Positions 6,930 through 44,874 of a stretch of 46,595 nt of DNA are shown one piece after another. The stretch lies in NCBI GenBank assembly GCA_039801505.1, contig JBDRUV010000008.1, positions 1-46,595 of the forward strand, written 5' to 3'. The stretch comes from a candidate division WOR-3 bacterium (lineage in GTDB: Bacteria; Hydrothermota; Tepidihabitantia; Tepidihabitantales; CAIPLT01). The notes beneath the pieces are model-generated. The model was not told the origin of the DNA, ran no database searches, and was given only the letters and a program-made list of their open reading frames with translations. Positions within the stretch are counted from its first letter, which is position 1. Each line of letters starts with the position of its first letter. A program made the translations under genes and the position numbers.

Positions 6930-7676
6930 ATGTCGTACGAAGACATACTCGAAGAAGAATTCAGTGTTGCTGTACACGACAAGACAAAAGAGATTACATT
7001 CAACAATGCAAAGATTGTACTCTTCAACAATGAAGAAGAGTGGGTAAGATTTAGAAGGCATAGAGTCACCGGGACAGATGTAGCTAAAATTCTACAATAC
7101 ATCCCTGGGATTGAAAAAGTATATCTCGATAAGGTATGTCCTTGTGATGAGATGCAAGTAAACGAAATGTCGCCTAGAATGATTCTGGGTAGAGAACTCG
7201 AACCACGCCTTCCCCATGTATGCAATCTTCTGTTCAATCTGAAGTTCAAGCATATAGGACACTTTAACAGCGTTCTTGGGGAATATAAGGGGGTACCCTT
7301 GAGTGTTTCATTAGACGGGTATCTGGTGGAAGACAACACAATATACCCCGTAGAAGTAAAATGCACCTCCCCATATTCTCAGCTTGGGAAGGCAAGAAAC
7401 ATTGAAGAAGTCCCCAACTACATCAAAGCACAAATAGGGTTGCAATGTCATCTGCTGAACGTAGACAAACTCTACCTCGTACGATTCACGCACATCGACA
7501 ACAACGGGTTGGTGGTGTTCATCTACCGGCACAACCGGGAGGAGTACGAGAAACAACTTGAAATCGTACGAGAGTTTTGGGTAAAATACGTTATTGGTGG
7601 TGAAGTCCCCGAATTTCTTAGAGCACAAAACAAGACACGAACACAAGATGAAGCAAGTAACACACAAACGTTCTAA
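6930..7676 (+). CDS. YqaJ-like PD-(D/E)XK exonuclease
   Basis: 248 residues; AGGAG about 9 nt before ATG 6930. The family pattern is complete: R-H-R-x-T-G-T-D near residues 43-50, G-R-E-L-E-P at 87-92, a catalytic Asp at 129 (SLDGYL), the E-x-K pair at 142 and 144 (VEVKC), and the following Q-x-x-x-Q/H helix near 168-174. Such enzymes are lambda-Exo-like 5'-3' nucleases that make single strands for recombination. Start and length fit phage members (200-330 residues). It is the last gene before the long non-coding block. The annealing partner is not identified; candidates are the products at 6447 and 9436. Confidence 0.9.
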   Translation: MSYEDILEEEFSVAVHDKTKEITFNNAKIVLFNNEEEWVRFRRHRVTGTDVAKILQYIPGIEKVYLDKVCPCDEMQVNEMSPRMILGRELEPRLPHVCNLLFNLKFKHIGHFNSVLGEYKGVPLSVSLDGYLVEDNTIYPVEVKCTSPYSQLGKARNIEEVPNYIKAQIGLQCHLLNVDKLYLVRFTHIDNNGLVVFIYRHNREEYEKQLEIVREFWVKYVIGGEVPEFLRAQNKTRTQDEASNTQTF

Positions 7677-7685
7677 GCCCTCAAA

Positions 7686-7797
7686 GCCGGCCCGAGGGGT
7701 GACATTCCTCCCCTCACCTTCAGCCCAGACCCACAGTCACAACTCTCTCTCTACGTCTATGCCTCACGTAGACCCACTCCCCGCCCCTCGGGCTGGC
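7686..7797 (+). repeat. GC-rich inverted repeat with alternative pairing
   Basis: Left arm 7686-7699 and right arm 7784-7797 pair over 14 positions with one G-T wobble. Inside are a 7-bp hairpin (7750-7756 with 7766-7772) and a competing 6-bp hairpin in which 7694-7699 (GAGGGG) pairs with CCCCTC at 7710-7715 instead of the identical CCCCTC at 7784-7789. Two mutually exclusive folds are thus possible. It could be an RNA switch or a DNA structure for an initiator or activator; no family is recognised. Confidence 0.6.
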
Positions 7798-7809
7798 ACG
7801 CTTCTTGCA
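7794..7809 (+). promoter_or_regulatory. Sigma-54 (RpoN)-like promoter
   Basis: TGGCACG, 4 nt, TTGCA matches the -24/-12 consensus (TGGCACG-N4-TTGCW) at every conserved base, with the invariant GG and GC at the correct 10-bp separation. Transcription would begin near 7820 and run through the palindromic AT-rich block into the helicase gene. The -24 element is part of the right arm of the GC-rich inverted repeat. An activator site would be needed upstream; none can be named. Confidence 0.5.
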
Positions 7810-7840
7810 ATTAATAAGAGTTATAATTTAAGTTTTAGTT

Positions 7841-7993
7841 TAACTAATAAATTAATTAGTTATAACTTAGTTACTAAGTTAATTAACTTAGTTAATAAAC
7901 TAAAGAGACTCTTACTCTTTAAGAGTAAGAGTCTCTTTAGTAAAATAACTTTAGTTAACTTAGTAATTATAACTAAAGTTACTAATTTAGTTA
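7841..7993. other. Candidate replication origin (iterons plus palindrome)
   Basis: Seven heptamers flank a long palindrome: TTAGTTA at 7856, 7867, 7888, 7951 and 7987, and its complement TAACTAA at 7841 and 7970. The segment is very AT-rich and lies directly upstream of the DnaB-like helicase gene, the usual place for a phage origin. No initiator gene is recognised, so this stays an inference. Confidence 0.45.
7900..7940. repeat. 41-bp perfect palindrome
   Basis: Positions 7900-7919 and 7921-7940 are exact reverse complements around a single central T. As RNA it would fold into a long hairpin without a following T-run, so it is not a standard terminator; as DNA it could extrude a cruciform. 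Confidence 0.9.
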
Positions 7994-8261
7994 CTGAGTA
8001 CTTTACTAAAGTTATAGAAACATATAGAGATTTATATATCCCTTTAGAAGTATTAGATAATAAATATGATAAGTATATAAGTCATAAGTATAGTAATCAA
8101 ATACTAAATAGCTATTCAAAAAGTACTTCAAGTAAGAAAAGAGTTCTAAATAAGAAAACAACAAGAAGAATAAACAATAAGAACAGTAACAGTCTAAAAT
8201 GTAATCATACAGAAGAGTTATAGAACAAACACTAACATCTATGCTCAAGGAGAATAACATC

Positions 8262-9983: not shown

Positions 9984-10409
9984 ATGTACAAGAAGCAATT
10001 CGATAATCACGACAAGATTAGTCTTATCCCCAACACTCTTGTACGCGACAAAATAATCAAACTGTTGCGCAAGGAGTATTTTAAGTTTACAGAACATAAG
10101 GGGAAAATTATCGTGAACTCTAACGACCTTAACGAGATTCAAAAAGTACTTCGCAAGAATAACATAGGGGTATTTCTCAAATGCTTCGACCCTCAGAAGA
10201 GTAGAGAGTTGAAGTTTGATTTCGAGAACGTGAATCTAGAAGAAGTACCTTATACCGCTAAGGTAAGCATGTACAAACGATTCCACAAGAAACTCTACAA
10301 CGAAACCCCTCATGAATTCCCTGACTCTCAGGTGATTGATGAGGAACTAAACAATCTATATTCTCAACTCAAACAGAAAGAACAAGAACAGCAAGATGAA
10401 GAAGAATGA
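9984..10409 (+). CDS. Unknown protein with acidic C-terminus
   Basis: 141 residues. AGGAGG at 9971-9976 overlaps the previous stop and is 7 nt before ATG 9984. Basic N-terminal two thirds, then a tail of Gln, Glu and Asp. Position suggests a replication role; nothing specific is recognised. Its stop overlaps the ATG at 10406. Confidence 0.75.
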   Translation: MYKKQFDNHDKISLIPNTLVRDKIIKLLRKEYFKFTEHKGKIIVNSNDLNEIQKVLRKNNIGVFLKCFDPQKSRELKFDFENVNLEEVPYTAKVSMYKRFHKKLYNETPHEFPDSQVIDEELNNLYSQLKQKEQEQQDEEE

Positions 10410-10477
10410 AAACACTATGCATGTTTCTAATGTGTGTATCTGTCTACAATAGCACAAACTTTGAAAGGGATGTTTCC

Positions 10478-11032
10478 ATGAGTAAGTTCACCGATGTGTA
10501 CTCCTTCGTGCGTTTTATGCTCGAGGGTGGGTACGTAAATCACCCCGACGATAAAGGTGGGGAAACTTGGTGTGGGTTAACTAAGAAGTTCCTACAAGAT
10601 AATAACATCAGAATACCACCCGGTGAGGAAGACATATACAATGGGTACAGTATAATCTATGAATATCTTCTAGACCCAATTAAGAAAACACCAGTGCTTA
10701 ATGATTTACCCTATGAAGTATCTCTGTGCATATTCGATATGCTCGTGCACATGGGAAAAACAAATGCTATCAAGAAACTACAACAAGTACTAGGGGTAAA
10801 AGTTGACGGGAAATATGGAATGGAAACACACAATGCGCTAATGCGTGAAGTGAAGAACAATAAGCTCGCCTTATGCAATAGACTCATATCAAGCAAGCTA
10901 AAACACTACACTGAGATTTGGAAGAAAGATAAGTCTCAACTTGTATTTGCACGGGGTTGGGTACGTCGTATGTGTGATATCATCGACGAAATAACCCCAG
11001 GTGCTAAGAAACCACCCGCAAACGAAGCATAA
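10478..11032 (+). CDS. GH108 muramidase (N4-type endolysin)
   Basis: 184 residues from ATG 10478, which has AAAGGG upstream; an in-frame ATG at 10406 would add 24 residues (MKTLCMFLMCVSVYNS...) that are mildly hydrophobic and could be a weak signal-anchor, as in the N4 muramidase. Start therefore uncertain. The family motif E-G-G-Y-V-N-H-P-D-D-K-G-G is at residues 16-28, with the catalytic Glu16. A C-terminal peptidoglycan-binding part (L-P-Y-E-V-S-L, F-D-M-L-V-H-M-G, V-D-G-K-Y-G) fits PG_binding_3. It cleaves the glycan backbone of the cell wall for lysis; a holin-like gene follows 0.7 kb downstream. Confidence 0.9.
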   Translation: MSKFTDVYSFVRFMLEGGYVNHPDDKGGETWCGLTKKFLQDNNIRIPPGEEDIYNGYSIIYEYLLDPIKKTPVLNDLPYEVSLCIFDMLVHMGKTNAIKKLQQVLGVKVDGKYGMETHNALMREVKNNKLALCNRLISSKLKHYTEIWKKDKSQLVFARGWVRRMCDIIDEITPGAKKPPANEA

Positions 11033-11051: not shown

Positions 11052-11540
11052 ATGCTTATCATTACTCACGACGAAGAATCTTTTCAGAAGCTTGTTTCTC
11101 TTGGTATACATACCAAATGCGATGAGGAAAAGCATCGCTGGGTAACAATCAAGAGCGCTGAATTCGACAAGATTACACTACAACTCAAAGATGATTTTGC
11201 GTTTAAAGTCGATATGCGTCTTAAGGGTACAAGCAGTAAGGGTAGAGTTAAAAGCGATAAGCAAAGCCCTTCAGTCAATCAACAATTATACCCCTCATTC
11301 TACTTCAAGAAGACTCAAGATTTAACCCCTGATGAACGCGTTAAAATGATAGAGGGGATGAGTAAAGATTTAAACATCTCCCCCAACAAAGATATGTCTG
11401 ATAAGGAACTAAACGCCTTACGCTACAAGTGGGGTCAATGGCGAAAAGAAAAACAACAATCCCCAGGGAATAAACAGCAATCAGAGAATGTTACAGAAGA
11501 AAAAGAAACACTTGATTCTGAACCTCCATTTGATATATAA
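11052..11540 (+). CDS. Unknown protein with acidic E-P-P-F tail
   Basis: 162 residues; AAGGAG at about 11038-11043 precedes ATG 11052, so the longer open frame from 11001 is not used. Two beta-rich halves with Lys/Asp-rich loops, then a Gln/Glu/Ser linker and the tail L-D-S-E-P-P-F-D-I. The tail resembles an SSB-type interaction peptide but does not end in P-F. Lies between the muramidase and the structured RNA. Function unknown. Confidence 0.75.
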   Translation: MLIITHDEESFQKLVSLGIHTKCDEEKHRWVTIKSAEFDKITLQLKDDFAFKVDMRLKGTSSKGRVKSDKQSPSVNQQLYPSFYFKKTQDLTPDERVKMIEGMSKDLNISPNKDMSDKELNALRYKWGQWRKEKQQSPGNKQQSENVTEEKETLDSEPPFDI

Positions 11541-11553
11541 TTAAATGAAATTC

Positions 11554-11660
11554 GCAGGATGCCCGGGATGCATAAGTCTAGTTTTATGCGGTGCTCGGCA
11601 GGTACAAGCGGGCATGAGTCATTCAACTGAGGTGTTGTATGATTCTCCTGGGCACCCTGC
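11554..11660 (+). ncRNA. Candidate structured RNA, perfect four-way junction
   Basis: This 107-nt element lies between the gene ending at 11540 and the holin-like gene at 11700. Closing stem: 11554-11568 with 11646-11660, 15 positions with one A-C mismatch and one G-U pair. Three hairpins fill the interior with almost no unpaired bases between them: 11570-11575/11584-11589 (six pairs), 11591-11597/11609-11615 (seven, two wobbles), and 11616-11622/11639-11645 continued after a U-U mismatch by 11124-type inner pairs 11624-11627/11634-11637. It lacks a T-loop signature, an anticodon arm of normal form and a U-tract, so it is neither tRNA nor terminator. Strand is inferred from the flanking genes. 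No Rfam family is recognised. Confidence 0.65.
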
Positions 11661-11699
11661 TCGCTCTATAGATGAGATGATATGTAGAGGGGATTGATT

Positions 11700-11921
11700 A
11701 TGAAATACGATGCTAAGAAGTCTTTTAAGAAAGCCGCTATTACCGCGATGTATGTAGCAGGTAGTATGCTTGCTACTAACCCTGAGACAGTACTAACACC
11801 CTTTGGTGGGCTTACAATATTGGGGGTTTTTCTTGCACGCTTCGCTCAAGACTGGGTGAAGAATAAAGACCTTGTAAATAACTACAAGGTGTATGACTTC
11901 ACTAACAAGCCCCGTAAATAA
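11700..11921 (+). CDS. Holin-like small membrane protein
   Basis: 73 residues from ATG 11700, with GAGGGG at 11687-11692. Basic N-terminus (KYDAKKSFKK), then two hydrophobic stretches (about residues 11-27 and 33-49) separated by a short N-P-E-T-V turn, then a charged tail. Size and topology fit a two-span phage holin or a similar lysis protein, and it lies just downstream of the muramidase. No family-specific motif. Confidence 0.6.
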   Translation: MKYDAKKSFKKAAITAMYVAGSMLATNPETVLTPFGGLTILGVFLARFAQDWVKNKDLVNNYKVYDFTNKPRK

Positions 11922-12025: not shown

Positions 12026-12379
12026 ATGACAGAAGACTCCTCTAAAAAAGATAAACTAGTAAAATCTTTTATGTCTGTATTATACTATGTTTCTGTGGAA
12101 ATTGAAAGACAAGAATGGAAGGGGCTTGGGTATAGTAGCACTGTCGTTATCCCCATCTTGAACAGAATCAGAATGTATCATTTGGGTGTGATAGATTTAG
12201 CAAATCTTACCTTCTATGAGATAATTGTAGAAATAAACAATACAATAGACGATATGATTAAATCACTCAAGAAACTAAGAACGCTCACAACAAAGAGAGT
12301 ATTAACAAGTCTTTCTTTGACACTTAGTAAATGCATCAGTATTCTTGAGGCATATAAAGATTTACTTTCTCTGATTTAA
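12026..12379 (+). CDS. Unknown helical protein at the convergent junction
   Basis: 117 residues, mostly predicted helix with hydrophobic heptad-like spacing. No good ribosome site precedes ATG 12026, so the start or even the gene is less sure. Its stop (12377-12379) overlaps the stop of the giant gene on the other strand (12376-12378). By position a lysis accessory is possible; there is no sequence support for that. Confidence 0.5.
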   Translation: MTEDSSKKDKLVKSFMSVLYYVSVEIERQEWKGLGYSSTVVIPILNRIRMYHLGVIDLANLTFYEIIVEINNTIDDMIKSLKKLRTLTTKRVLTSLSLTLSKCISILEAYKDLLSLI

Positions 12380-15300
12380 TTAAGCTTCAATATATTGTAA
12401 AGCATTGGGTTATCTTTCTTGAGATACTCTACAAACATATTCCCCATATTCTCTTTAACGTCAAGCTTAGTATCGAGCAACCCTTTAGCATGCAACGCAG
12501 ATACCATTGTGCTCTTGAATCTCTCTTCGTCTTCTTTTGATATCCCCTTTAGCTCATCGTTCTTCGCTTTATTAAGTATTTTGTTCACGACTCTACTTAG
12601 CTCTTTTCTGTTCTTAATCTTCCCATATTTGGGGTCATCAAGCATAGTGTAATCAAAATACTTCATCCCAACTTTTCTGTAATTGTACAGTTGAGTATCT
12701 CTTACAACAATCCACTTAGAATATTGACGATATAGTTCTTCTTTCATACCACCGTTAGAGTATAGAACAAGTCTCGACACACCGGGCATAGAAGACAGAG
12801 TATACAAGAACTTGCTTATCTCATCACCCTCTTTACTTGGTTTTGTTTTACCCTCAGCGTTGTATTTAATGAAGTCAAATAAATCCTGAAGGAACTCTCG
12901 CTTTGGTAAGAACCCACCAAATATCTGAAATGTAGAGTACAGCATTAAGCGCCCATACGCTTCAGCATCAGACGCCTTAAATACTTTATCATCAATGATT
13001 ACTCGCCCGGTGAATGGGTCTATGGGGTTGTTCCCCGTAAGCATACTTGTAAGTGAAGATACCAAATTGAGCATTGGGTTAAGGTCTTCGCTCTTCCCTG
13101 GGAAATCAGTAACTACAGCATGAAGAAGATTGTTAAGTAGTTTTCTGTAGGAATTCATCTGATATGCTTCTACAGCCCCATAAGCAACAGCGTTAATAAA
13201 GCTACCAACTGTATCATCTACGAAGCGCACAGCAAGCGTTTTATCATCATTAACATCGAGATACAAAGGAATAACCGTAGAGGTCATCAGGTGATACTTA
13301 GGAATGTTTCTATACAACTTCATGAACTTAGCGTCTTTGCTATCATAGTTCTCTCTACCCAACAATATCTCAAGCAGTTTATCAAGTAACCCCGATATGG
13401 CAAGAGCCGCAATAGACTTAGGGACAAAATCTAAATACAAACTTCTAAACAATACTCTCTGAAGATTCTCTTTGTTCTTACTTAGATAATCCCAGTTCGC
13501 AAATATACTCTGTATTCTTGGGTTGAAGAACACGAATATTCTGTTGAGATATACTGTGAATATACCCTTCTTAGTAATATCAGGGGTACCGGCATATCTA
13601 CGTACAAACTCAGCAATATCTTCAAGTTTGAGATTATTCTGTCCACTCTTAGAACGTCTATAGAGATACAACGCCGCTGAGTATTTCGTAATTTTATCAG
13701 ACATGTCAACGAAATTCTTGAACTTCTCAAATATAGAATCATGAATGAATTCACCTATGCTCTCTTCTTCGGTCATGAATTTGCTTTTATAATTTGAAAT
13801 TTCTGTTCTAACTATGTCTCTCACAGCGCTCATGGGGTTCCCGTCTATAATGCTCTCAGAGAAGTCACGCAATAAAGCCCCACTCTGCTCAAGCGCTCTG
13901 AAGAATTCCGCCTCATCTTGATTTAGATATTTAGAATATTCACTCACCGATACATCATAGAAAGATTTATAATAAGCAAATCTAGCAGCATCTCTATAAG
14001 CAAGCTTCAATTCACTCATGTTGATAGTATCGGGGAGAAGGCGTATCATTTGCTTAGTATCACGTGTTATATTAGTAGCAACGAAGAATGGGTTATACGT
14101 CACCCAAATCTTCTTGAATGCATCAATAGCAAAAGATAATAGTTGAAGCATGTAGGGTGTATGTGTTACACGATTATTTAAAAGCCCCACCAAGTCATAT
14201 CGCCAATCAGCCGCATGCTGCGCTAATCTATATACGTACGGTACGCCTTCCTCATACACAAGAACGTCTTTAGACCCATCATACAGCGCCTTACCAGCAT
14301 ATTTTCTCTTAGCAAACTGAGTTGGTATGTCTTCACTAAGTTCTTCTTGTACCTTATCAATAATTTCCCTCTTGAATTTATTACTGTAACTCATCTCAAC
14401 AATAGCAGCCCAGTGTTCTAATGTTCTAGCTAATATCTCTAGTGGGTTGTTCGTGGGAACTAGATTCTTAGGTCTATCTGATGCTGTGAATGGTACGTTA
14501 TTCCAGGGTAAAGCCGGGTGTAAAGGCATATTAAATACAAGAAGAGGTATTCGTTCAGGGTCATAGTCAGCTATCATCCCGCTGTCTTTTAGTTCTTCAT
14601 ATATCTTAGCAATCATATTTCTGAATGCTTCTTCAACAATTTCTCTCTTTTTCTCTGCGTCTTTTATCATGTAGAAATCATGAAACACTTTATCATAGTC
14701 TTCTCGTGTTAAATTCAAGAATATACTAGCTACATTTTCATCGCCCTCCTCAGCGCCCAACATCGCCTTAATAGCACTATTAAACTCCCCACGATGCTCC
14801 CAGGCAACTCTCATTAATATAACCCCAGCCTCTTGTGGGGTAATATTATTATTCGACAATGAAGATATAAACTCATTAATGTAAAACTTAGAATAGTCTG
14901 AACTTCTCAGAAGACGAGCATATGTGCTCTCTATTCTTGCTCTTATCTCTTCAGGAAGAGCATAAGATACATCCTGCAGATATGTTCTAACGCTTCTGTA
15001 GAATTTGTATATAGTACTTTTTATGCTATCCCCAGTGATTAGATTTCTAAACTCATCTATCATGTAACTCAACATTTTCTTTTTTCTTTCTTCTTTTGTT
15101 TCAGTTAACCCACTCGGAGATAGAAGTTTAAGAGTACTTTCGGGTATAGTTTCAGTATCTTCGCTATATAGAGTTTTTGCGCTTATCACCCCAGTTGTTT
15201 CATTTTCTAAGTACCCACTAAGTATACCAACAGCAACGTCAATAATCTTTTCTCTTTTGAGCTCTTCTTCATCATCATAGGGCCAATACCCACTCGAGTC

Positions 15301-18300
15301 TGTTCTTATCTTACTTGCAAGCTTCTCCACTACTTCATAGTTATCTCTCAATTGTGCTAACAATATTTTTAAATCTTTTATATAGGCAAGTTGTTCTGGT
15401 GTTACTGCAGCCCTCTCAAGAGAATTATCTTCATCATCCATAATGGCGTGCAGTAATTCATGCAGCAATAGATATTGTGTAAACCCTGAAGATGCTCTAC
15501 CATTCTCATCAATCTCTTTTCTACCTATTACAACAACACTACCAACCTCCGTAGCTACACCCGGCGCTAAACCCTTAGCAGTACTTCTTGCAAATCTGTT
15601 AAAGGTGAAATACTGTCTCCCATTTTCACGCATTGCATTTATTTTGCCTCTATTCTCTGATGTGTTAATCTTCCACCAATTGTTCTTCTTATCTTCAAGA
15701 AGAATGTTCAATAAGTTATTCAAGTCCCTATAGAAAGAATCATCACTCCTCCAGTCTCTACCTCTACTCTTGTAGGCGTCTATTATTACACCTACTGCAT
15801 ATTCAAGCATTTCTGTTACATCTCTAACTTGATTCGTTACATAGATTAACTCAGGAATAGAAGATGGGGATGTAGACCCAATCGGGTGTCGTATTATCTT
15901 CACGCCCTCTTGCGATGATTGAATATATTGTGATATCACCGTCCCAACATTTTCAATTTCGGGACTAAGACTCTCTATGTTAAACGCATCAAGATACTTA
16001 CTAAAATCAAGAGGTTCAAGTCTTATGTTAAGTGTCGCTATCAACGATTGCAATCTTGAATAGCTAACATTGTTTCTCAGTTTATCAATTAACCCCTGAG
16101 CTATAGGGTTTTTAATATGCGCCATTATGGCGTTCTTAGCAAGTCTCTTAAGTATTGTTCTGAAAGATACATATTTACCTCCACCACTCTTTTTCTTGCT
16201 TTTCCGCCCTGATTTCTTCTTCTTACCAGTAGGCGTAACACCCTCAAACGGTAATTTAACCTGCTTAATAGGAGCACCATGGGGCCCTATATTAGATATC
16301 GGTGATTCCTCGCTGGGCGCAGGAGATTGCGATTCCTCGCTCTCATTCTCGTTTGTCTCACTTTCCGTTCCGGTGGGTGTTTGGGTGGGTGTCTCTTGCT
16401 GTGTTTCTTGTGATTCTACATCTTCCTCTTCAGCAATCCCCGACTCTGATGTTAAATCAGTATCAATAATCTCATCAAATATCTTTGCGAACTCTTCATA
16501 CCCATCATCAATATCTTCCTCAGGAGATTGAGTATTCGTCGAACTCTTATTCGGCGTTTTCTTCTCAGAAGTCTCTGCTGTATTTTCTTCCCCCTCTATC
16601 TCTTCATTATCACCACCAAATGCCTTCTTCCATAATTTAAGATATTCTTCGGTCTTGACAGCCCTCCCCTCAACACCTTGGGATGTGCTTCTTCTTAAGG
16701 CAGACATTGCAAAATGTATGTCTAACAGTTGGTCTACTATACTATTAAACAGTCTCCCCTGTGTACTACTTAAAAGTTCTTTGTAATGTGTATATAAAAA
16801 CTTATGAATATTTAGTTTTCTTCTAAAATCTTCTTTAACTTTCTCATCTTCTATTTCTTCGATTTTTAACTCTAACTCTTTAATCAACTCAGGGTCAGAT
16901 AGAAATTCTAATAGCTGCTCTATTTTAGTAAAATCAACATAGTTAACTTTTGCTTTACCCTTTGATGAAATATTTTTTTTTCTTATTCCCAATTCCCTTG
17001 CAACATCATCACCCTCTGTAAGTGTGTAGAAGAAATCTCTGTATCTACTTCTATCTATAAGCCCAAGAAGACTCTGCCTCCATCCCAATAACTCCTCATA
17101 CATTACTTTCTCAAATCTTTTTTGCGCCCATCTTCTACTTAAATCTATTTCATCAGTTACGTCATCCCCCCTTGAGGCTATGTAATACACGCTTTTCTTT
17201 CTATAGTTATATTTCTCCCCCGTTTTCTTATCTTCCCAAAGAGGTGAATCTTCACGTATTATGAATATACCATCGCTCTCATCTCTATTCTCTAATGTTA
17301 CGAGCAATCTGATGAAATCCATTTCAGATACCATGTCATTCGATGGGGAATGTAAATTATATTTCAAATAAGTCATAAAAGATGTTGTTATTGGGACTAT
17401 ATTCGTTAATTTTTTATCCCTTAATAGTGTAAGAATTTTCTTAAATGTTTTATTGGTATTTGAATAATTAATGTATAAAGCCCACGCCCTTTTAATTGCA
17501 CTATTCAAATAATCTTTCGGGTTGAGAATTTTCTCTTCTCTACTCCTCGTAGTTTCATTGTAAAAGCTTACCAATAACCCAGTATCAGACATTACCGTCG
17601 AAAATACTGGGAGTTTTAAACTAGACTCCTTCGATTCCGGAGCCCAGAAAACGAAATACTGCTTGAGCAAATACTCTAATAATTCATTACGCTCTTTCTC
17701 GTTATTTGTATAAACAATAGCATTAACTTTATCTCTTAAATTTTCATTAAGTAATACATTAAACAATATCTGTCCCGCAATTGCAGATGTAGCAATATCA
17801 TCTAAATTTGTTGGTTTAACTTTAAAGAATGCGAGAGCATATGCAAGTTTCTTAATATAGTTTATATTTTGAGGGTCTTGAGTTGTTGTATAATACCCAT
17901 AATGTGGGTCGTCTCCACCATTGTACTCATCAAGTGTTTTCGTTATTAATTTAAGCAAATTCTCAAATCGCGTTAAAGATTCTGTACTATCTTTACCTAA
18001 TGCCCTTAACAGCAAAGCCCTTGCAAGCGTGTGTGCGTCTAATAATATCTCACCCTCTTTATCTTTGAAATACTCGTTGTTTGTTATTCTCGTTAGTAAT
18101 CTATAATACCAAGGCATGAAACTAAATACTTCTGCAACGTTATTCGCAAGCTCAGTAATTTTAGTAGATTGTTTAACCCCGTCAAGAGTTATAGAGCGAA
18201 CCTCATCAAACACATTAGAAAGATTATTCAATATTACACGCGTTGAAACGAGAAACGCTTTTCTTTTATTATCTAGTGGGTCTGTATAAACTACAGCAAA

Positions 18301-21300
18301 AACATACGGTGAATAATCTGTTTCATTAATAAATATTGGGCGAAATGTTATGTCTTCATACCCTCTTTCAATCAGCAAATTTTCTATAGCATCAAAAAAC
18401 TTTTTATCAGTATGTATAGGTTCAGCATTCTTTTTTCTTAAGAGTCTATGAATCCCAGCACCTATCGCATTTAACTTGCTATTCTTTTTCGTATACTCAA
18501 TTACAGTACTCTCATCATATTTCCAGGAATAATCATCGCCTATGCGAAATTCTTCAACATTTGAAGTTGCTTGAGAGACCCCAACTTTCTTTTTACCCTC
18601 AAACGCAGACTTACCCGATACAGTCTTGAGTCCCATTGACTCATCTAAATTAGATGTATCAATATCAACGAAGTCAACACCATCGGGCAAATCATTAACT
18701 TTAGTTAATAATAGCTCATGGACAAAGACATCAGATATAGCCCCGTTCACTTGAACTCTTGCGGATTTTTTATACTTAGTAATAGCATCCCACCCAATAT
18801 CAACATTAATATTAGAGTTTAATAATATGTATCTCTTTTTAGGAGCCCCAGAAGTACTTTTGTAATTAAGAGCTATTTCTGCATTTTTTGTGGGTTTGTA
18901 TTTATACTCTATCGCGTATACTTCATTAGAAATTCGTTGAATACCTGTAAACTCAAATATAGAAGCAATCTTTAGAAGTAAATCGCCAGGGTTAGTTGGG
19001 ACGATGGGGACTGGGTATTCATTGTCTTCAGCATCTTCTCTTAGATTTCTCATGAACGTTACAAATTCTCTTGCACGTTCATTTATAGTATCAGAGTCAA
19101 CTTTCCCCAGCGATTTAGTTAAATCATGTACAAGAGCATAGATTTCATGTCTACCCTTAGTATCAGAGAATGAGCGGTCAGGTGGAATATTCTTGTATAT
19201 ATTAAAATCAGTGAGAAGATTTAATGTTGCTAACAGATGCTCTAAAGAATAGGGGAAAACTATAGGGTTAATATCGTCAAATACATCCCCGTTAGGCAGA
19301 GTCTTAAACCCAAGAATACCTCTATAATTCCCCCTCGGGAATAAAGCAAGAGTATTATCTACAAGCTTAAGTAATTCATCACTCGTTAAATTATGTCTCT
19401 CTAATACAATATTAGTTGGGATTACACTGAATGCATAATCACCTATTTGTATTATGTTACCATCTGTATCTTTTATTACATTATCAACTTTCTCATGTTC
19501 AATTATATTGAATTTTATTTCATAATCATTTTCAATCTTCTCTTTTAACTTTCTTATATTCTCTGGGACTTTATTCCAATCATCTATTCTTAGCTCAATC
19601 TCTGTATCGTCTTTTACGTTCCTCCCCTCTTTTAATGAATATTTGATTCTAATCTCTCTGAAATACTTTATCAGGTCAACCAGCGCATTCCTCACATCCT
19701 CCGGGAGCATTTTAAAATTATAAACTATTCTTGCGCCATTTGAATTAGTAATCGCTATTTCAGCGTCAGAAATATTACTCATAGATATTACTTCTGATAA
19801 ATTTGTACGCTCTAATATCTCATTATTATTACCCTCTCTTATTTCAATATCATATTTCTTAAGTGTTCTCTCAATATTCTTTATTGTGTCTACACCGGTG
19901 TAATTGGGGTCTCTATACGCTATTAAAGAAACTCTTGTTATGGTGTTTGTATTTGCATCAAAATGTCTTCTTAATTTAACTATGTAATTATTGTTGAACA
20001 ACGCCTGAATGGCATAGAAAAGCTCTGAATATTTTTTTATTTGAACTTCACTCTTTTTATTTACATCGCCATCTGTGGCGATAAATACATACTCTTCACC
20101 AAAATTATTCTTGTCTAAAACGATGTCTTTAATAAACTCTCTTGCATTCGTTGGTGTATTATTATCACTATCTTCTTCAGGTTCACTATCCCCCGCCTTC
20201 TTCTTTTTCTTCTTCCCCTTACTACCTCCTCCACCTCCTCCATCACTCTCATCATCCACTTCTATTTCTTCTTCCACCTCCTGCCCGTCTATGACTCTCT
20301 TAACCCTTACCGTCTTCCTACCACCACTACCAAACCCACTATCAAGTTTAAAATTAACTAACTTAATTATTCTAATTAAATTTTTGTATGCTCTTAATAC
20401 GCTCTCAAAAGAATATTTATTCGCTTTTCTCAGAGATACAAGCAATGCCTTACCCTGCTCAAGTCTACTAAGATACCCCGCCAGTTCTTTGGGCGTGGTG
20501 AATATATTCAAATTGGGTGGGCCATCCGTCCCGTATATTTCTCTCTCTAATTCTTTTAATTCAATCTGCGTAATATACTCAGAAAGCTTCTTAAGTGTAT
20601 CCCCAATGGGTGTAGAATATAATGCAGCTTGCATTCTTATTGACTTATAAAAAGATACAATATCATTCAGATTTGCATTTTTCTTTCTTCTTAATTCGCT
20701 ATCGCTAATCTCATCAGGTATGGGAACTTTAAATCTATATTCCTCATCCCCCTTAATTTTATATCTAACAATCATGTTAAGCCCATCACGAGATGGTTTT
20801 AATGTAATTCTTTGATATTCAAATCTAACATCTGGGAATGTAGTAATAATTTTCCTGGCGGTATCTACATCACCAAGAGCATATGCGACGGCAGCATATA
20901 GCTGAGCATTCCCCTTTGTAACACTCACACCACGAAAATCAACACTAGCGCCTTCATTACCTTTTGCATAATTCTGTACTAATCTATGAAGGTCTTGTAA
21001 ATTAGAGAAAGATAGATTTCTTAACAATATTCTTCGAATGCCATCAAGACTTTCACGCACTATCTGTGAATGAGTCTTATCTTGGGTATTGGATAATTTA
21101 CCTAATATATCATTAATTTCAGGGTAGAAATTACTAAATACTGAATCTGTTTTGAATTGCTCAAGATTTTTAAATAGTTCCCTCGCTACATCCTCAAGTG
21201 TTACAGGAACTATCTCTTCTTGCTTTTTCTTTTGTTCTTCCTCACTACCAAGAACATCTTTCCCCTCTTCAAGCTTTTTTAATTCTTCATCTAAATTAAT

Positions 21301-23922
21301 TGCTTCCTGAGCTACTTGTTTTTCTCCTTCTAAATATTTCTGCAGTTTCTCTGTAATCGTTTTTATATTTTCAACAACTTGAACTATACCATCGTGCGTT
21401 GTCTCTCGCGTGAATGGAGTAACCGCTCTACCAAAACTCAATGCTAAATCTCTTATGTTTGCAAATACAGGGACTAATCGAGTGAACCCTTTAACTTTTT
21501 CTTTGTCTTGTTTTATTACTTCTCCAATAGCTTCGCTTAATGCGCTTAGACCATCAAAAGCTATATTTCTGCGTTCCCCACTGAAAACGCTTTTAATTGC
21601 CCTAACAGCCTCCTGATTATCAGATGCGTTTTCTATGAAGTATAGCGCTATAGCATTCTGTATTGGAGTCTTATTGTTTGCTTTTACACCATAACTTCTT
21701 AGTCTATCAACTACACTCTGCGACGCCTCGCTATCGGGAGTTAGAGCAAGAAGCGGGACACCACCCGATGTAAATATATCTTTCGCGCTATGTCCACCGC
21801 CAACATTACCTCGAGCAATCACACGTTGGAAGAAATACCCTAACCCTCTATAATCTATAGATTGCTTATCAACAGCAAATGCTTTGATTATTGGTGGGGT
21901 ATCTTCTTTAATTGTAGATTCAGTTTCCACACCATACAACGTACCCAACGGAGACACGAGAAAAGAATCGCGTGATAGTTCATAAGAATCACCTTTAACA
22001 TTGATATTTAATATTGGGACAAGAGCACCCCATACATCACCAAGAGTAACATCTTCACTGTGCTGTATAGTTGGGTTATAAAATTTATCTAAATCAAAAT
22101 GTACAAAGCTTTCACCTACATTGTATTTGTTCATTCTTACATATATCGCATTCCCCTCTTGTTCGCTACCAACACGGAAATAATATGCAAGCTTACTCTC
22201 AGCAATTTTTTTAATCGGGGTTTTCTTTGTCTCAGGCGTATTAAGCCCAAAAGAACTTCTAATATTATCTATAGCACTATTTAAATTTACTTTTCTATCG
22301 GATAAATCAGCATCATTTCTTTGCTCCGCATCAATTACTTGAGATATTTGAAATTGATTCTCCGCTTGAACAATATCACCAATCAGCGCTATCGGGTCTA
22401 TATCTTGATTGTTAGCTCTTGCATCTGACACTCTATTGGCGACATCAATAAGATATCTAGCATTAGGGTTTATAATTATTCCATTCTGTACTGCTTTTGA
22501 TAATTTATTATCAACTTCCTGATTAAATACATCAGGGTTTATACTCTCAAAATCTCCATTATTAGATAACAATCTAGACGTTTTGTTTACTATGTTTCTA
22601 AATCTACCAAGCGCTACAGCATAATCACCCGCCTTTAATAGCCCGCCAGTAATCATAATTGTAGACATTGTTAATGCAAATGTTCTTGTATCAGTGATTA
22701 ATTGATTCGCGGGCATCTTAGGGTCTACACCTGCTATCACCTGGTCTACCATATTCTCTGCTATTTGCTGCATGTATTCTTCACTGAATTCCGCTATAAG
22801 CCCATCCCACGGGGCTATCTTTCTCATTTCTTTTATTTGTTTAAGTGCATTATCTACAAAATCTTTTCTAATATTAATATCTTTTAGCATTTCTACATTC
22901 GCAATTTTACTCTCCATCTTGGCGAATGCATCACCAACAGAATTATAAATTTTATTGTCTTTCAATACATCGGGGATTACTTTATTCACCTTCTCCAATA
23001 ATTTGTATCTATCAGCGGCTTTACCCAATATTTTCCCTATAGCACCACCTACTATCCCCCCACCCCATACTTCTATTGCCTCATTTATTGTTGCAAATAC
23101 TGTTGATGCAAATAGTTTGGTACTCTCAGGAATATTGGGAGCTTCAACAGTTAATACTTTATTCCCATTCTCATCTTCATTTGATACTATCTGGGGGGTT
23201 GTATAATCAACATATTTCCCAGCCACCTGAAGCGCTATAGACCCTAGCATTCCCGCGGCCAATGATGTAACATTACCCCATGTAGCGGGGTTACCTAATA
23301 TAGCCTTGGAAATATAATATGGGGCCGTATACGTAAGAGATGTAGCAACGCTACTAGCAATATCAGATACAATAGAATGCTGAGCGGGTTTAATCGCTTC
23401 AAGCTTAGAAATATTCTCAAGTACTGTTTTCTGTTCTTCTTCCGGAAGGGCCGATAGCGATTGCTCATTTACCTCATTAATCCCATACTTATTCAATATC
23501 GCAAGTACGTTCTGCGCATATTGTAATTGTTCTGATTTTGAAAAATAATATGGTATCTTTGTTAATGGAAACTCGTCTTTCCAATACGACGCGGGACGTT
23601 CTTGAGCAATCTCAGCAATAACGGGGTCTATACGAATTGTCTTAACAGCATTCTCAGATACAGGGATAGCATTCCCACTTATAACATTCTGTACGTACTC
23701 ATCGTATTCAACAGATTTAAAGAATAAATCAGAAGTAATCGGTGGGGCGTAATTAACACTGTTTCGTAATTTCTCAGCACCATCTTTGATTATTGCTTCT
23801 TTTTGCTTAAGTCTCTTATATTCTTCTTCTAAAGATGCATACCCCTCATCACCAATAGATACATCTGGGACAACATCTTCTTGTGGCGTAGGTACACCTA
23901 AGACATCATCAAACTTCATCAC
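12376..23922 (-). CDS. Giant ejection/internal virion polyprotein-like protein with metallopeptidase motif
   Basis: 3,848 residues, a quarter of the window. Seen in order: two hydrophobic segments near residues 183-235 and 411-438; a Gly/Lys-rich low-complexity linker near 1218-1254; a long Ser/Thr/Glu/Pro linker with a Lys-rich end near 2434-2590; a zinc-peptidase motif H-E-L-L-H at 2821-2825 with a possible third ligand in D-E-F near 2955; and a region at about 3270-3515 (Y-N-P-F-F-V-A-T-N-I-T-R-D-T, M-S-D-K-I-T-K) like the large polyvalent protein-associated domain LPD38. Such proteins occupy the T7 gp16 or N4 vRNAP position and are injected with DNA. I found no RNA polymerase signature. 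Linkers suggest modular, perhaps cleaved, domains. Last gene of the late operon. Confidence 0.88.
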   Translation of the reverse strand: MMKFDDVLGVPTPQEDVVPDVSIGDEGYASLEEEYKRLKQKEAIIKDGAEKLRNSVNYAPPITSDLFFKSVEYDEYVQNVISGNAIPVSENAVKTIRIDPVIAEIAQERPASYWKDEFPLTKIPYYFSKSEQLQYAQNVLAILNKYGINEVNEQSLSALPEEEQKTVLENISKLEAIKPAQHSIVSDIASSVATSLTYTAPYYISKAILGNPATWGNVTSLAAGMLGSIALQVAGKYVDYTTPQIVSNEDENGNKVLTVEAPNIPESTKLFASTVFATINEAIEVWGGGIVGGAIGKILGKAADRYKLLEKVNKVIPDVLKDNKIYNSVGDAFAKMESKIANVEMLKDINIRKDFVDNALKQIKEMRKIAPWDGLIAEFSEEYMQQIAENMVDQVIAGVDPKMPANQLITDTRTFALTMSTIMITGGLLKAGDYAVALGRFRNIVNKTSRLLSNNGDFESINPDVFNQEVDNKLSKAVQNGIIINPNARYLIDVANRVSDARANNQDIDPIALIGDIVQAENQFQISQVIDAEQRNDADLSDRKVNLNSAIDNIRSSFGLNTPETKKTPIKKIAESKLAYYFRVGSEQEGNAIYVRMNKYNVGESFVHFDLDKFYNPTIQHSEDVTLGDVWGALVPILNINVKGDSYELSRDSFLVSPLGTLYGVETESTIKEDTPPIIKAFAVDKQSIDYRGLGYFFQRVIARGNVGGGHSAKDIFTSGGVPLLALTPDSEASQSVVDRLRSYGVKANNKTPIQNAIALYFIENASDNQEAVRAIKSVFSGERRNIAFDGLSALSEAIGEVIKQDKEKVKGFTRLVPVFANIRDLALSFGRAVTPFTRETTHDGIVQVVENIKTITEKLQKYLEGEKQVAQEAINLDEELKKLEEGKDVLGSEEEQKKKQEEIVPVTLEDVARELFKNLEQFKTDSVFSNFYPEINDILGKLSNTQDKTHSQIVRESLDGIRRILLRNLSFSNLQDLHRLVQNYAKGNEGASVDFRGVSVTKGNAQLYAAVAYALGDVDTARKIITTFPDVRFEYQRITLKPSRDGLNMIVRYKIKGDEEYRFKVPIPDEISDSELRRKKNANLNDIVSFYKSIRMQAALYSTPIGDTLKKLSEYITQIELKELEREIYGTDGPPNLNIFTTPKELAGYLSRLEQGKALLVSLRKANKYSFESVLRAYKNLIRIIKLVNFKLDSGFGSGGRKTVRVKRVIDGQEVEEEIEVDDESDGGGGGGSKGKKKKKKAGDSEPEEDSDNNTPTNAREFIKDIVLDKNNFGEEYVFIATDGDVNKKSEVQIKKYSELFYAIQALFNNNYIVKLRRHFDANTNTITRVSLIAYRDPNYTGVDTIKNIERTLKKYDIEIREGNNNEILERTNLSEVISMSNISDAEIAITNSNGARIVYNFKMLPEDVRNALVDLIKYFREIRIKYSLKEGRNVKDDTEIELRIDDWNKVPENIRKLKEKIENDYEIKFNIIEHEKVDNVIKDTDGNIIQIGDYAFSVIPTNIVLERHNLTSDELLKLVDNTLALFPRGNYRGILGFKTLPNGDVFDDINPIVFPYSLEHLLATLNLLTDFNIYKNIPPDRSFSDTKGRHEIYALVHDLTKSLGKVDSDTINERAREFVTFMRNLREDAEDNEYPVPIVPTNPGDLLLKIASIFEFTGIQRISNEVYAIEYKYKPTKNAEIALNYKSTSGAPKKRYILLNSNINVDIGWDAITKYKKSARVQVNGAISDVFVHELLLTKVNDLPDGVDFVDIDTSNLDESMGLKTVSGKSAFEGKKKVGVSQATSNVEEFRIGDDYSWKYDESTVIEYTKKNSKLNAIGAGIHRLLRKKNAEPIHTDKKFFDAIENLLIERGYEDITFRPIFINETDYSPYVFAVVYTDPLDNKRKAFLVSTRVILNNLSNVFDEVRSITLDGVKQSTKITELANNVAEVFSFMPWYYRLLTRITNNEYFKDKEGEILLDAHTLARALLLRALGKDSTESLTRFENLLKLITKTLDEYNGGDDPHYGYYTTTQDPQNINYIKKLAYALAFFKVKPTNLDDIATSAIAGQILFNVLLNENLRDKVNAIVYTNNEKERNELLEYLLKQYFVFWAPESKESSLKLPVFSTVMSDTGLLVSFYNETTRSREEKILNPKDYLNSAIKRAWALYINYSNTNKTFKKILTLLRDKKLTNIVPITTSFMTYLKYNLHSPSNDMVSEMDFIRLLVTLENRDESDGIFIIREDSPLWEDKKTGEKYNYRKKSVYYIASRGDDVTDEIDLSRRWAQKRFEKVMYEELLGWRQSLLGLIDRSRYRDFFYTLTEGDDVARELGIRKKNISSKGKAKVNYVDFTKIEQLLEFLSDPELIKELELKIEEIEDEKVKEDFRRKLNIHKFLYTHYKELLSSTQGRLFNSIVDQLLDIHFAMSALRRSTSQGVEGRAVKTEEYLKLWKKAFGGDNEEIEGEENTAETSEKKTPNKSSTNTQSPEEDIDDGYEEFAKIFDEIIDTDLTSESGIAEEEDVESQETQQETPTQTPTGTESETNENESEESQSPAPSEESPISNIGPHGAPIKQVKLPFEGVTPTGKKKKSGRKSKKKSGGGKYVSFRTILKRLAKNAIMAHIKNPIAQGLIDKLRNNVSYSRLQSLIATLNIRLEPLDFSKYLDAFNIESLSPEIENVGTVISQYIQSSQEGVKIIRHPIGSTSPSSIPELIYVTNQVRDVTEMLEYAVGVIIDAYKSRGRDWRSDDSFYRDLNNLLNILLEDKKNNWWKINTSENRGKINAMRENGRQYFTFNRFARSTAKGLAPGVATEVGSVVVIGRKEIDENGRASSGFTQYLLLHELLHAIMDDEDNSLERAAVTPEQLAYIKDLKILLAQLRDNYEVVEKLASKIRTDSSGYWPYDDEEELKREKIIDVAVGILSGYLENETTGVISAKTLYSEDTETIPESTLKLLSPSGLTETKEERKKKMLSYMIDEFRNLITGDSIKSTIYKFYRSVRTYLQDVSYALPEEIRARIESTYARLLRSSDYSKFYINEFISSLSNNNITPQEAGVILMRVAWEHRGEFNSAIKAMLGAEEGDENVASIFLNLTREDYDKVFHDFYMIKDAEKKREIVEEAFRNMIAKIYEELKDSGMIADYDPERIPLLVFNMPLHPALPWNNVPFTASDRPKNLVPTNNPLEILARTLEHWAAIVEMSYSNKFKREIIDKVQEELSEDIPTQFAKRKYAGKALYDGSKDVLVYEEGVPYVYRLAQHAADWRYDLVGLLNNRVTHTPYMLQLLSFAIDAFKKIWVTYNPFFVATNITRDTKQMIRLLPDTINMSELKLAYRDAARFAYYKSFYDVSVSEYSKYLNQDEAEFFRALEQSGALLRDFSESIIDGNPMSAVRDIVRTEISNYKSKFMTEEESIGEFIHDSIFEKFKNFVDMSDKITKYSAALYLYRRSKSGQNNLKLEDIAEFVRRYAGTPDITKKGIFTVYLNRIFVFFNPRIQSIFANWDYLSKNKENLQRVLFRSLYLDFVPKSIAALAISGLLDKLLEILLGRENYDSKDAKFMKLYRNIPKYHLMTSTVIPLYLDVNDDKTLAVRFVDDTVGSFINAVAYGAVEAYQMNSYRKLLNNLLHAVVTDFPGKSEDLNPMLNLVSSLTSMLTGNNPIDPFTGRVIIDDKVFKASDAEAYGRLMLYSTFQIFGGFLPKREFLQDLFDFIKYNAEGKTKPSKEGDEISKFLYTLSSMPGVSRLVLYSNGGMKEELYRQYSKWIVVRDTQLYNYRKVGMKYFDYTMLDDPKYGKIKNRKELSRVVNKILNKAKNDELKGISKEDEERFKSTMVSALHAKGLLDTKLDVKENMGNMFVEYLKKDNPMLYNILKLN

Positions 23923-42168: not shown

Positions 42169-43029
42169 ATGTCTAAACTCATTAAAAGCGTTATACCCTA
42201 TGTAGGGGGTAAATATTTCATGCTCAAACATCTTCTCCCTCTAATACCTCCTCATAATATCTATGTAGAAGTATTCGGAGGAGCAGCTAATCTATTACTC
42301 AATAAACCCCCCTCAACTATAGAAGTATACAATGATATTAATAGCGAACTAGTCACTCTATTTAGAGTTATTAGAGATAAAGATAAATTAGAAGAACTTA
42401 AACGTTTACTTTATCTCACACCCTTCTCTAGAGATGAATATAATCATCTACTCAATCAAGATATATCGTCTCTATCTGATGTCGAAAGAGCTTACAGATT
42501 CTACTACATATGCAGAACATCGTTCAATGGGATACCCGGAAGAAGCTTTGCTTACCCAACACCCGGGAGAAATAGAACTATATCTTATCTGAACTCTATA
42601 GACAAACTAGATTTAATCTATGAACGATTTAAATACATCACAATAGAAAATGACTCCTTCGAGAAAATCATACCCCGTTACGATTACCCCGACACTCTCT
42701 TCTACTTAGACCCGCCCTATATCCCAGATACTCGTAAAGATAATCGCTTCTATCAACATGAAATGTCCTATGAACAACACGAACAATTAGTCTCTCTACT
42801 TCTCAACATAAAAGGGATGTGTATATTGTCTTGCTATATGCATGATATGTATAATATTCTCATAGAGAACAATTGGGGCGTTATTGAAATAGAATCTGTT
42901 GCTCACGTTAAGGGGTATAAGAAATATACCCCAGAACATATTAAAAACAAAAAACTACACGATAAAAGAACTGAGGTTATACTTATTAACCACAAATGTG
43001 TTAAGGCAATTGAATATGAAATTTATTAA
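42169..43029 (+). CDS. D12-class adenine-N6 DNA methyltransferase 1
   Basis: 286 residues, usual size for Dam-type enzymes. SAM-binding motifs: P-Y-V-G-G-K at 10-15, E-V-F-G-G-A-A-N-L-L-L at 34-44, Y-N-D-I-N at 54-58; catalytic D-P-P-Y at 181-184. The variable part between about 115 and 145 (G-R-S-F-A-Y-P-T-P-G-R-N-R) lies in the target-recognition zone. No own ribosome site; likely coupled to the peptide gene. No cognate restriction enzyme is near, so it is an orphan enzyme, perhaps to protect phage DNA or mark it for packaging. Confidence 0.95.
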   Translation: MSKLIKSVIPYVGGKYFMLKHLLPLIPPHNIYVEVFGGAANLLLNKPPSTIEVYNDINSELVTLFRVIRDKDKLEELKRLLYLTPFSRDEYNHLLNQDISSLSDVERAYRFYYICRTSFNGIPGRSFAYPTPGRNRTISYLNSIDKLDLIYERFKYITIENDSFEKIIPRYDYPDTLFYLDPPYIPDTRKDNRFYQHEMSYEQHEQLVSLLLNIKGMCILSCYMHDMYNILIENNWGVIEIESVAHVKGYKKYTPEHIKNKKLHDKRTEVILINHKCVKAIEYEIY

Positions 43030-43873
43030 GAGCGTTATTCCATACATAGGCGGTAAATACTATATGCTCAAGCATTTACTTCCTCTGCTACCACCTCATA
43101 ATGTATATGTAGAGGTGTTTGGCGGGGCAGCGAATCTCTTAATCAATAAACCCCCATCGCATATAGAAGTCTATAACGACATCAATAGTGACTTGGTAAC
43201 TCTCTGGAGAGTTGTAAGAGATAAAGAAAAACTTGAAGAATTAAAACGCTTACTCTATCTCACACCTTACTCAAGAGAAGAGTTCAATTATCTCAAATAT
43301 CAAAATACAGAAACATTATCAGACGTTGAAAAAGCTTACAGATTTTATTATATATGTAGATGCGCTTATAACGGAATGGCAGGAGTAAGCTTTTCAGGGA
43401 GAGCATTTGTAAAAAATAAAGCTGTTTTTTACTTCAATTCAATAGATAAATTAGATATCATCCATGAACGATTTAAATACGTAATAGTAGAAAATCAATC
43501 TTTTGAAAAATTAATACCTCAATTCGACGACCCTCATACCCTCTTTTATCTAGACCCACCCTATATTCATGAAAAACGCCACTCTAGTAAATATTATCAA
43601 TATGAAATGAAAAATGAACAACATAAACAACTCGTATCTATTCTACTAAACACTAAGGGTATGTGCATCCTCTCAGGATATATGCACGAAATATATCAAC
43701 CCCTACTCGATAACAATTGGAAGAAGATTGAAATAAATGCAGTGGCCTATTCAAAATGTGTACCAAGACAAGAACAGCAAATGCAAAAACGCTCAATAAT
43801 TCTTAATGAAGTTGTCTTTTTAAACCCTCAATGTATCAATGCTTTAAAGCAATCTAATATTCTCTCTAATTAA
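43016..43873 (+). CDS. D12-class adenine-N6 DNA methyltransferase 2 (tandem paralog)
   Basis: 285 residues from ATG 43016, which overlaps the previous gene by 14 nt; the frame is open back to 42899 but only as a shadow. Motifs are Y-I-G-G-K at 10-14, E-V-F-G-G-A-A-N-L-L-I at 33-43, Y-N-D-I-N at 53-57 and D-P-P-Y at 180-183. Identity to the first enzyme is high outside the region about 120-140, where this one reads A-G-V-S-F-S-G-R-A-F-V-K-N-K. The C-terminal part is also different. A tandem duplication with possible change of target specificity is likely. Confidence 0.93.
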   Translation: MKFIKSVIPYIGGKYYMLKHLLPLLPPHNVYVEVFGGAANLLINKPPSHIEVYNDINSDLVTLWRVVRDKEKLEELKRLLYLTPYSREEFNYLKYQNTETLSDVEKAYRFYYICRCAYNGMAGVSFSGRAFVKNKAVFYFNSIDKLDIIHERFKYVIVENQSFEKLIPQFDDPHTLFYLDPPYIHEKRHSSKYYQYEMKNEQHKQLVSILLNTKGMCILSGYMHEIYQPLLDNNWKKIEINAVAYSKCVPRQEQQMQKRSIILNEVVFLNPQCINALKQSNILSN

Positions 43874-44237
43874 TTCCCACCTCTTATTTCCCTCAATTCT
43901 AATTATACCCCGCCCACTCTGTCTCTCATCAGAAAAACTCTTTACACATCTGCTAAATATGTAAAAGATTATCATCCCCCCTAAATATAAAAATTTTCTC
44001 TGCGGGGGAATACAGAAGCATAAAAAAATTCTCTGTAGGGGTAGTTCAAAGACGCGCGTCAGCGCGTATCCCCCCGTAGGGGGGGGTATACGTAGAGCTT
44101 TCTACGTATACCGCTTTGCGGTCGAGAAACCTGTTCGGATAATCGGCGGCGGCCAGGATAGTCGGACGGCCGGATTTGTCGGCGGCCGCGGTGGCCGCGG
44201 TTCGGCCGTAGGGTTCCGCAACGATAAGGAGCATCAT
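43874..44237. other. Non-coding AT/GC transition segment
   Basis: 364 bp with no supported gene. The first half is AT-rich with two related elements near 43989-44012 and 44022-44043 (A/T run, TCTCTG, then a G run). From about 44045 the sequence turns GC-rich and holds a cluster of dyads (44051-44122). The final part carries the ribosome site (AAGGAG, 44226-44231) of the next gene. Confidence 0.7.
44051..44122 (+). repeat. Cluster of overlapping dyads at composition boundary
   Basis: Seen: a 10-bp palindrome GACGCGCGTC (44051-44060); a C6/G8 hairpin with a GTA loop (44070-44086); a perfect 12-bp stem 44085-44096/44101-44112 with a GCTT loop; and a 5-bp stem 44110-44114/44118-44122. The last three share bases, so they exclude each other. 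No T-run follows, so a simple terminator is not supported. Confidence 0.7.
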
Positions 44238-44579
44238 ATGGAACTCAAGGAACCTGTCAAAGTTAAGTTCTTCAGTTCTCCAGATGCAAAACTGAAAAAG
44301 TTTTGCGCCGTAGTCGGGTGCCGTAGTACGGCGCCGGATGAGGTCGCGCGCGCGTTGTTATCAGAGTGTTACGCGTCGGGCGACATGGACGCGGCGCGTC
44401 CAGGTTCGCGGTTCTCCGTGATACCTTTCAGTTATTACGCGTCGGCCGTCGCGGGCGTAATATTTGAGTGTATCGCTGAGCTCGGCGGCGGACTTGTTGC
44501 GTGCGCCGGCGTTGTCGCGTTGGACGTGAAAAAGCTCGATGAGCTTCGTTCGAAAAAGTCCGTCCAGTCGTTCGACTAA
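44238..44579 (+). CDS. GC-rich small array-type protein 1
   Basis: 113 residues; AAGGAG at 44226-44231 is 6 nt before ATG 44238. Composition about 62% G+C with GC-rich third positions, very unlike the neighbouring methyltransferases. The end of the protein (V-V-A-L-D-V then K-K-L-D-E-L-R) has the terminal strand plus charged helix seen in the left array. Ala- and Val-rich centre may be mildly hydrophobic. Function unknown. Confidence 0.72.
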   Translation: MELKEPVKVKFFSSPDAKLKKFCAVVGCRSTAPDEVARALLSECYASGDMDAARPGSRFSVIPFSYYASAVAGVIFECIAELGGGLVACAGVVALDVKKLDELRSKKSVQSFD

Positions 44580-44658
44580 TACAGTTGCGGCCGTTCTGTT
44601 CAACGTACGCGGCCGGCGCGTCCGGCGCCGGCCGCGTCAACAATTTGGAGGACACAAC

Positions 44659-44874
44659 ATGTCTAAGCGTGAGATAATGGATTTGGCCGCGCAATGTGCG
44701 GCCGACGCGTCAAGCTTGGTTGTTGGCTTGAAGTTCGGTGTCGACATGCGACATGGTGTAGTGTATTGGTCTTCGCGCGTGGGTGATTATGTCACGCTGT
44801 ACGCGCGTGGCGGGCGCGAGGTTGAGTTGGCCGACATGATTCGGTCACGGTTTGGTGTTGAACCTATACTGTAG
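44659..44874 (+). CDS. GC-rich small array-type protein 2
   Basis: 71 residues from ATG 44659 with GGAGG at 44647-44651; the longer frame from 44539 overlaps the previous gene and has no site. The C-terminal strand (Y-V-T-L-Y-A-R) and helix (E-V-E-L-A-D-M-I-R-S-R-F-G) match the general plan of left-array proteins such as that at 1079. Function unknown. Confidence 0.7.
   Translation: MSKREIMDLAAQCAADASSLVVGLKFGVDMRHGVVYWSSRVGDYVTLYARGGREVELADMIRSRFGVEPIL

What the first reader, a model, noticed from the sequence alone, without database searches (positions are those of the whole stretch)
11554..11660. Compact four-way-junction RNA element next to the lysis genes
A 107-nt intergenic stretch folds into a closing stem of 15 positions and three hairpins with almost every base used and no spare linker, a cloverleaf-like four-way junction. 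It has no tRNA signature and no terminator T-run. This much exact pairing in about 100 nt is unlikely by chance and I recognise no known family. It might be a phage RNA with a role in lysis timing or packaging, or a DNA cruciform that the phage's own RusA-like resolvase could recognise; the latter is speculation.
Basis: partly seen in the sequence, partly recalled or inferred. Interest (0 to 1): 0.85.

Follow-up and report, generated by a model that had tools for sequence, protein, structure and literature searches.

The report
Orphan structured RNA before holin-like gene
A 107-base gap in a virus of bacteria really does fold into a tight four-armed RNA shape just before a likely cell-lysis gene, but no related copy could be found, so it is best read as an ordinary kind of RNA control element of unproven function.

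Summary
The fold is real. Window 11554-11660 (+) forms a closing stem (14 pairs over 15 positions, one A-C mismatch) and three hairpins around a four-way junction with two unpaired bases: -52.8 kcal/mol, z -6.3, 1 of 20,000 fixed-position shuffles as stable. Over the whole contig it is less exceptional: it is one of several strong structures, and shuffled contigs sometimes match its z-score, though none in 20 matched its energy. No Rfam family, tRNA or terminator matches. The contig (C8 of a 1.94-Mb bacterial assembly) is a tailed-phage genome. The element fills a 159-nt gap before a 74-aa holin-like gene whose Shine-Dalgarno lies in a second hairpin. Searches of own genome, 147 genomes of the phylum, phages, plasmids and pattern scans of viral and bacterial contigs found no homologue. 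The same gene on another phage contig of the host (59-61% identity) has no comparable fold upstream, so conservation and covariation are untestable here. Five G-U pairs against one A-C mismatch favour, weakly, a + strand RNA over a DNA cruciform. Best reading: a cis-acting intercistronic/leader RNA that holds back the holin-like gene, a known kind of control (T4 gene e). Function is inferred.

The parts
11554..11660 (+). structured element, four-way junction RNA fold, GC 54% in a contig of about 37% GC
11554..11568 (+). 5' arm of the closing stem (GCAGGATGCCCGGGA)
11570..11589 (+). hairpin 1, 7 pairs, loop UCUAGU
11591..11615 (+). hairpin 2, 7 pairs, 11-nt loop
11616..11645 (+). hairpin 3, 7+4 pairs with a U-U mismatch, loop UGAGGU
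11646..11660 (+). 3' arm of the closing stem (TCCTGGGCACCCTGC)
11661..11692 (+). second hairpin (-9.6 kcal/mol) that covers the Shine-Dalgarno (GAGGGG) of the holin-like gene
11700..11921 (+). holin-like gene (73 aa from this ATG, two hydrophobic stretches); no Pfam or PHROG hit; 59-61% identical to an ORF on contig C13 of the same assembly
11512..11541 (+). sigma-70-like promoter match (TTGATT-18-TATAAT) whose predicted start would be a few bases before the element; such matches occur at chance density here
11052..11540 (+). upstream neighbour, 162 aa, unknown function
10406..11032 (+). GH108-type endolysin

Best explanation
It is a cis-acting structured RNA in the transcript of the lysis genes of a tailed phage. 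The lysis genes follow the replication genes on the + strand, opposite to the structural genes, so transcripts of the replication genes would run into them. The four-way-junction RNA, followed by a hairpin that covers the Shine-Dalgarno, separates the holin-like gene from the upstream gene: ribosomes finishing at 11540 cannot simply re-initiate, mRNA ends may be protected or processed there, and new initiation must open a hidden ribosome site. The result would be low or delayed holin synthesis. Shown: the predicted fold, the position, the predicted covering of the Shine-Dalgarno, and absence from known families. Inferred: that the sequence is transcribed, that the downstream protein is a holin, and the effect on expression.
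For: Fold far more stable than shuffles and kept in context. It fills a 159-nt gap in a genome of mostly abutting genes. The + strand is the better RNA folder (-52.8, z -6.3, against -43.4, z -5.5), and 5 pairs are G-U on + with 1 A-C mismatch, which on the minus strand would be 5 A-C and 1 G-U (binomial p about 0.11). Ribosome site of the holin-like gene: opening energy 8.4 kcal/mol, 4th highest of 37 starts examined. Precedent: T4 lysozyme gene e, where RNA structure over the ribosome site in early transcripts cuts lysozyme synthesis about 100-fold (PMC3014915).
Against: No homologue, so no covariation. The homologous gene on C13 has an unremarkable leader (z -1.2; no alignment above shuffles) and an average ribosome-site opening energy (4.8 kcal/mol). 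The four-way junction itself does not change predicted access to the ribosome site. No expression data.
Confidence: 0.5

Rival explanations
1. A discrete trans-acting small RNA of the phage, made from the promoter-like site at 11512-11541 and cut or ended after the closing stem.
For: Compact self-contained fold; a 10-of-12 promoter match ends 12 bases upstream.
Against: Promoter matches occur at chance density (17 found, 17.7 expected); no terminator after the element; no family.
Confidence: 0.13
2. A chance or functionally neutral fold, picked out because it is among the best of a 46-kb window.
For: Several other long structures of equal or lower z in the same contig, and 4 of 20 shuffled contigs have one of equal z; related phages also have many; C13 leader lacks it.
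Against: 1 in 20,000 at that position; no shuffled contig reached its energy; it lies in the small intergenic fraction, between lysis genes.
Confidence: 0.2
3. A DNA-level element: cruciform or single-strand DNA structure used in replication, recombination or packaging, for example recognised by the RusA-like resolvase.
For: 15-bp near-perfect inverted ends; both strands fold as DNA (z -4.4 and -3.3); RusA gene present.
Against: G-U/A-C asymmetry leans to RNA; a branched cloverleaf is not the shape a simple cruciform extrudes; the likely origin is elsewhere, 7.68-8.24 kb; the terminase is far away.
Confidence: 0.1
4. A small inserted mobile element of the MITE kind with terminal inverted repeats.
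For: 107 bp, 15-bp imperfect terminal inverted repeats, GC content unlike its surroundings.
Against: Single copy in the assembly and none in 147 genomes of the phylum; no clear target-site duplication on reading the flanks.
Confidence: 0.04
5. A short coding gene (ORF 11545-11697, 50 codons, or 27 codons from 11614), the structure being secondary.
For: Open frame ending two bases before the holin-like ATG; the last 27 codons score like real genes (0.04 bits per codon).
Against: Over all 50 codons the score is poor (-0.27 bits per codon); no obvious Shine-Dalgarno at 11545; no PHROG hit.
Confidence: 0.03

Closest known systems
T4 gene e (lysozyme) leader structure (PMC3014915)
   Same: RNA structure just before a phage lysis gene; ribosome site paired; lysis genes reached by earlier transcripts
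   Different: T4 uses a simple hairpin over the start site and a late promoter inside it; here a four-way junction stands in front of a separate hairpin, and no late promoter within the structure was identified
T7-type RNase III processing sites and REP-like intercistronic stabilisers (from general knowledge)
   Same: structured RNA between genes of a phage or bacterial operon
   Different: those are mostly single irregular hairpins; RNase III cutting was not tested
lambda S holin sdi stem-loop (from general knowledge)
   Same: RNA structure that tunes holin translation
   Different: lambda's is a small stem-loop choosing between two starts; no dual start was looked for here
phi29 pRNA (from general knowledge)
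   Same: phage-encoded compact branched RNA of 100-200 nt
   Different: no Rfam match here, not beside the packaging genes, different phage type

Membership tests
any Rfam 15 family | match to a covariance model | tested here: not met
   the only gathering-level hit in the window is a tRNA at 5480; best weak hit near the element is Chlorobi-1, 11.5 bits, not overlapping it
tRNA/tmRNA | ARAGORN or Rfam tRNA call | tested here: not met
intrinsic terminator | stem followed by T-run | tested here: not met
   no site at the element on either strand
T4 gene e-type lysis leader | Shine-Dalgarno or start codon of a lysis gene held in an RNA helix | tested here: met
   hairpin 11661-11692 covers GAGGGG (prediction only; lysis role of the protein is inferred)
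T4 gene e-type lysis leader | late promoter inside the structure giving transcripts without it | tested here: inconclusive
   one search shows no + strand sigma-70-like site within 11554-11700; promoter types of this phage are unknown
T4 gene e-type lysis leader | measured repression of translation | not testable with these tools
   needs reporter assay
MITE-like element | multiple copies with target-site duplication | tested here: not met
   one copy
conserved structured RNA | compensatory changes among homologues | not testable with these tools
   no homologue found

The most novel reading that the evidence does not exclude
A new class of phage lysis-control RNA: a four-way-junction leader that senses something (ion, ligand, protein, or a dimer through its palindromic loops CUAG and GUAC) and sets the time of lysis.
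Probability: 0.07. Interest if true: 0.7.

Novelty: new member of a known kind. Interest (0 to 1): 0.3.

Why it matters
If the element controls the holin-like gene, it would add an RNA-level timing device for lysis in a poorly sampled phage lineage whose lysis genes follow replication genes. As it stands it is one orphan sequence: useful as a seed for homologue searches in metagenomes, not yet a class.

Tried and rejected
(1) C13 leader as a diverged homologue: by eye it shares ATGCCC, ATGAGT and ATTCT, but fold z is -1.2, the model gives no significant match and alignments do not beat shuffles (local p 0.6-0.7, global p 0.07-0.23). (2) Closing-stem pattern scans: 45 viral loci and one Micromonospora contig; the model hits are very GC-rich (71-76%) and match only the selected stem. 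(3) Loop-2 15-mer in viral contigs: 93 stretches, 80 loci scanned, no model match. (4) Protein-led searches for close relatives failed: holin-like gene, endolysin, terminase, upstream gene; DnaB and terminase/portal gave only distant phages (about 24-34% identity). (5) A 10-codon upstream ORF (11639-11671) with SD-like GAGG in loop 3: poor codon score (-0.97 bits per codon, n=10), left as an idle possibility.

Full report
OBSERVATION. The stretch 11554-11660 (+) folds alone into a four-way junction: closing stem of 5 pairs, one A-C mismatch and 9 pairs, then hairpins of 7, 7 and 7+4 pairs, two unpaired junction bases, -52.8 kcal/mol, z -6.26. Of 20,000 dinucleotide shuffles one was as stable, and none of another 10,000. 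The fold is unchanged in longer natural context. The topology by itself is only mildly rare (about 1% of shuffles); the stability is what stands out. In a contig-wide, z-scored local-fold scan it is one of several strong structures, and block-shuffled contigs produce a long fold of equal z in 4 of 20 cases, although none as stable in energy. The distantly related Desulfofustis phage and a 48.5-kb phage contig of the same bacterial phylum also contain strong folds.

SETTING. The window is the whole contig C8 of a 1.94-Mb, 57-contig bacterial assembly. It is a tailed-phage genome: portal- and terminase-like proteins on the minus strand, a 3848-aa protein encoded at 12376-23922 on the minus strand, and on the plus strand RusA, a YqaJ/RecE-type exonuclease, DnaB and a GH108 endolysin. 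The element lies 13 bases after the stop of a 162-aa gene of unknown function and 39 bases before the ATG of an ORF of about 74 aa with two hydrophobic stretches. I call that ORF holin-like on size, hydropathy and its place near the endolysin; no Pfam or PHROG model matches it. A 59-61% identical ORF lies on contig C13 of the same assembly, together with an endolysin fragment 54% identical; the other window proteins gave no match on C13.

NO FAMILY, NO RELATIVE. Rfam at gathering and lax thresholds gives nothing; ARAGORN finds no tRNA there. DNA comparison finds one copy in the assembly, no match in plasmids and only short, weak chance-level matches in phages. A covariance model of the single sequence finds only itself in the own genome and in 147 genomes of the phylum. 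Pattern scans for the closing stem or for loop 2 produce only matches expected from the selection. Protein-led searches of the viral and genome collections found no close relative of this phage. The C13 leader does not resemble the element in fold or sequence beyond chance. Covariation is therefore untestable here.

RNA OR DNA. Of 39 pairs five are G-U on the plus strand and one further position is an A-C mismatch; on the minus strand the counts would be reversed. With equal odds this or a more extreme split has p = 7/64, so it only leans towards a plus-strand RNA. The plus strand also folds better than the minus strand. DNA folding of both strands is also better than shuffles, so a DNA role is not excluded.

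MECHANISM. Directly after the element a second hairpin (11661-11692, -9.6 kcal/mol) covers the Shine-Dalgarno of the holin-like gene; the energy needed to open that ribosome site, 8.4 kcal/mol, is the fourth highest of 37 starts examined. The four-way junction does not itself change the predicted access. The most economical reading is a leader or intercistronic RNA that insulates and restrains the holin-like gene in transcripts coming from the replication genes. The principle is known from T4, where a structure at the start of lysozyme gene e in early transcripts cuts synthesis about 100-fold (PMC3014915). Transcription, protein function and effect on expression are inferred, not shown. The promoter-like match at 11512-11541 is no evidence, because such matches occur at chance density.

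VERDICT. Observation confirmed; interpretation partly supported. An orphan example of a known kind of phage RNA control, interest 0.3.

Noticed in passing
window 7677-8240: Long gap before DnaB with very strong AT-rich nested inverted repeats (7834-8015; local fold 7856-7977 z -14.5); probable replication origin, although a 209-codon frame (7594-8223) crosses it with a poor codon score.
   Followed up: partly
window 7686-7798: A second GC-rich intergenic stretch of 113 nt closed by a 16-pair stem (+ strand, z -6.3), 9 bases after the exonuclease stop; its inside is mostly unpaired and pyrimidine-rich, unlike the four-way junction.
   Followed up: partly
window 44100-46595: The right end jumps to 56-76% GC and carries a 1.3-kb array of a 9-bp unit (CGCGTCGGC, 45205-46539) with small GC-rich ORFs before it; possibly a chimeric join or foreign segment.
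   Followed up: no
window 42169-43873: Two overlapping, similar D12-class adenine methyltransferase genes in tandem.
   Followed up: no
window 12376-23922: A 3848-aa protein on the minus strand, a quarter of the contig.
   Followed up: no
window 11855-11904: Strong hairpin at the end of the holin-like gene, terminator-like on the minus strand (ACCTTGTAGTTATTTACAAGGT then CTTTATTCTT), which could end late transcripts.
   Followed up: no
L010 5910-6107 and 11-316 (contig C13): A second phage-like contig of the same host (tape measure, primase) shares only the holin-like gene and an endolysin fragment with this phage, as if lysis genes were exchanged between phages of one host.
   Followed up: partly
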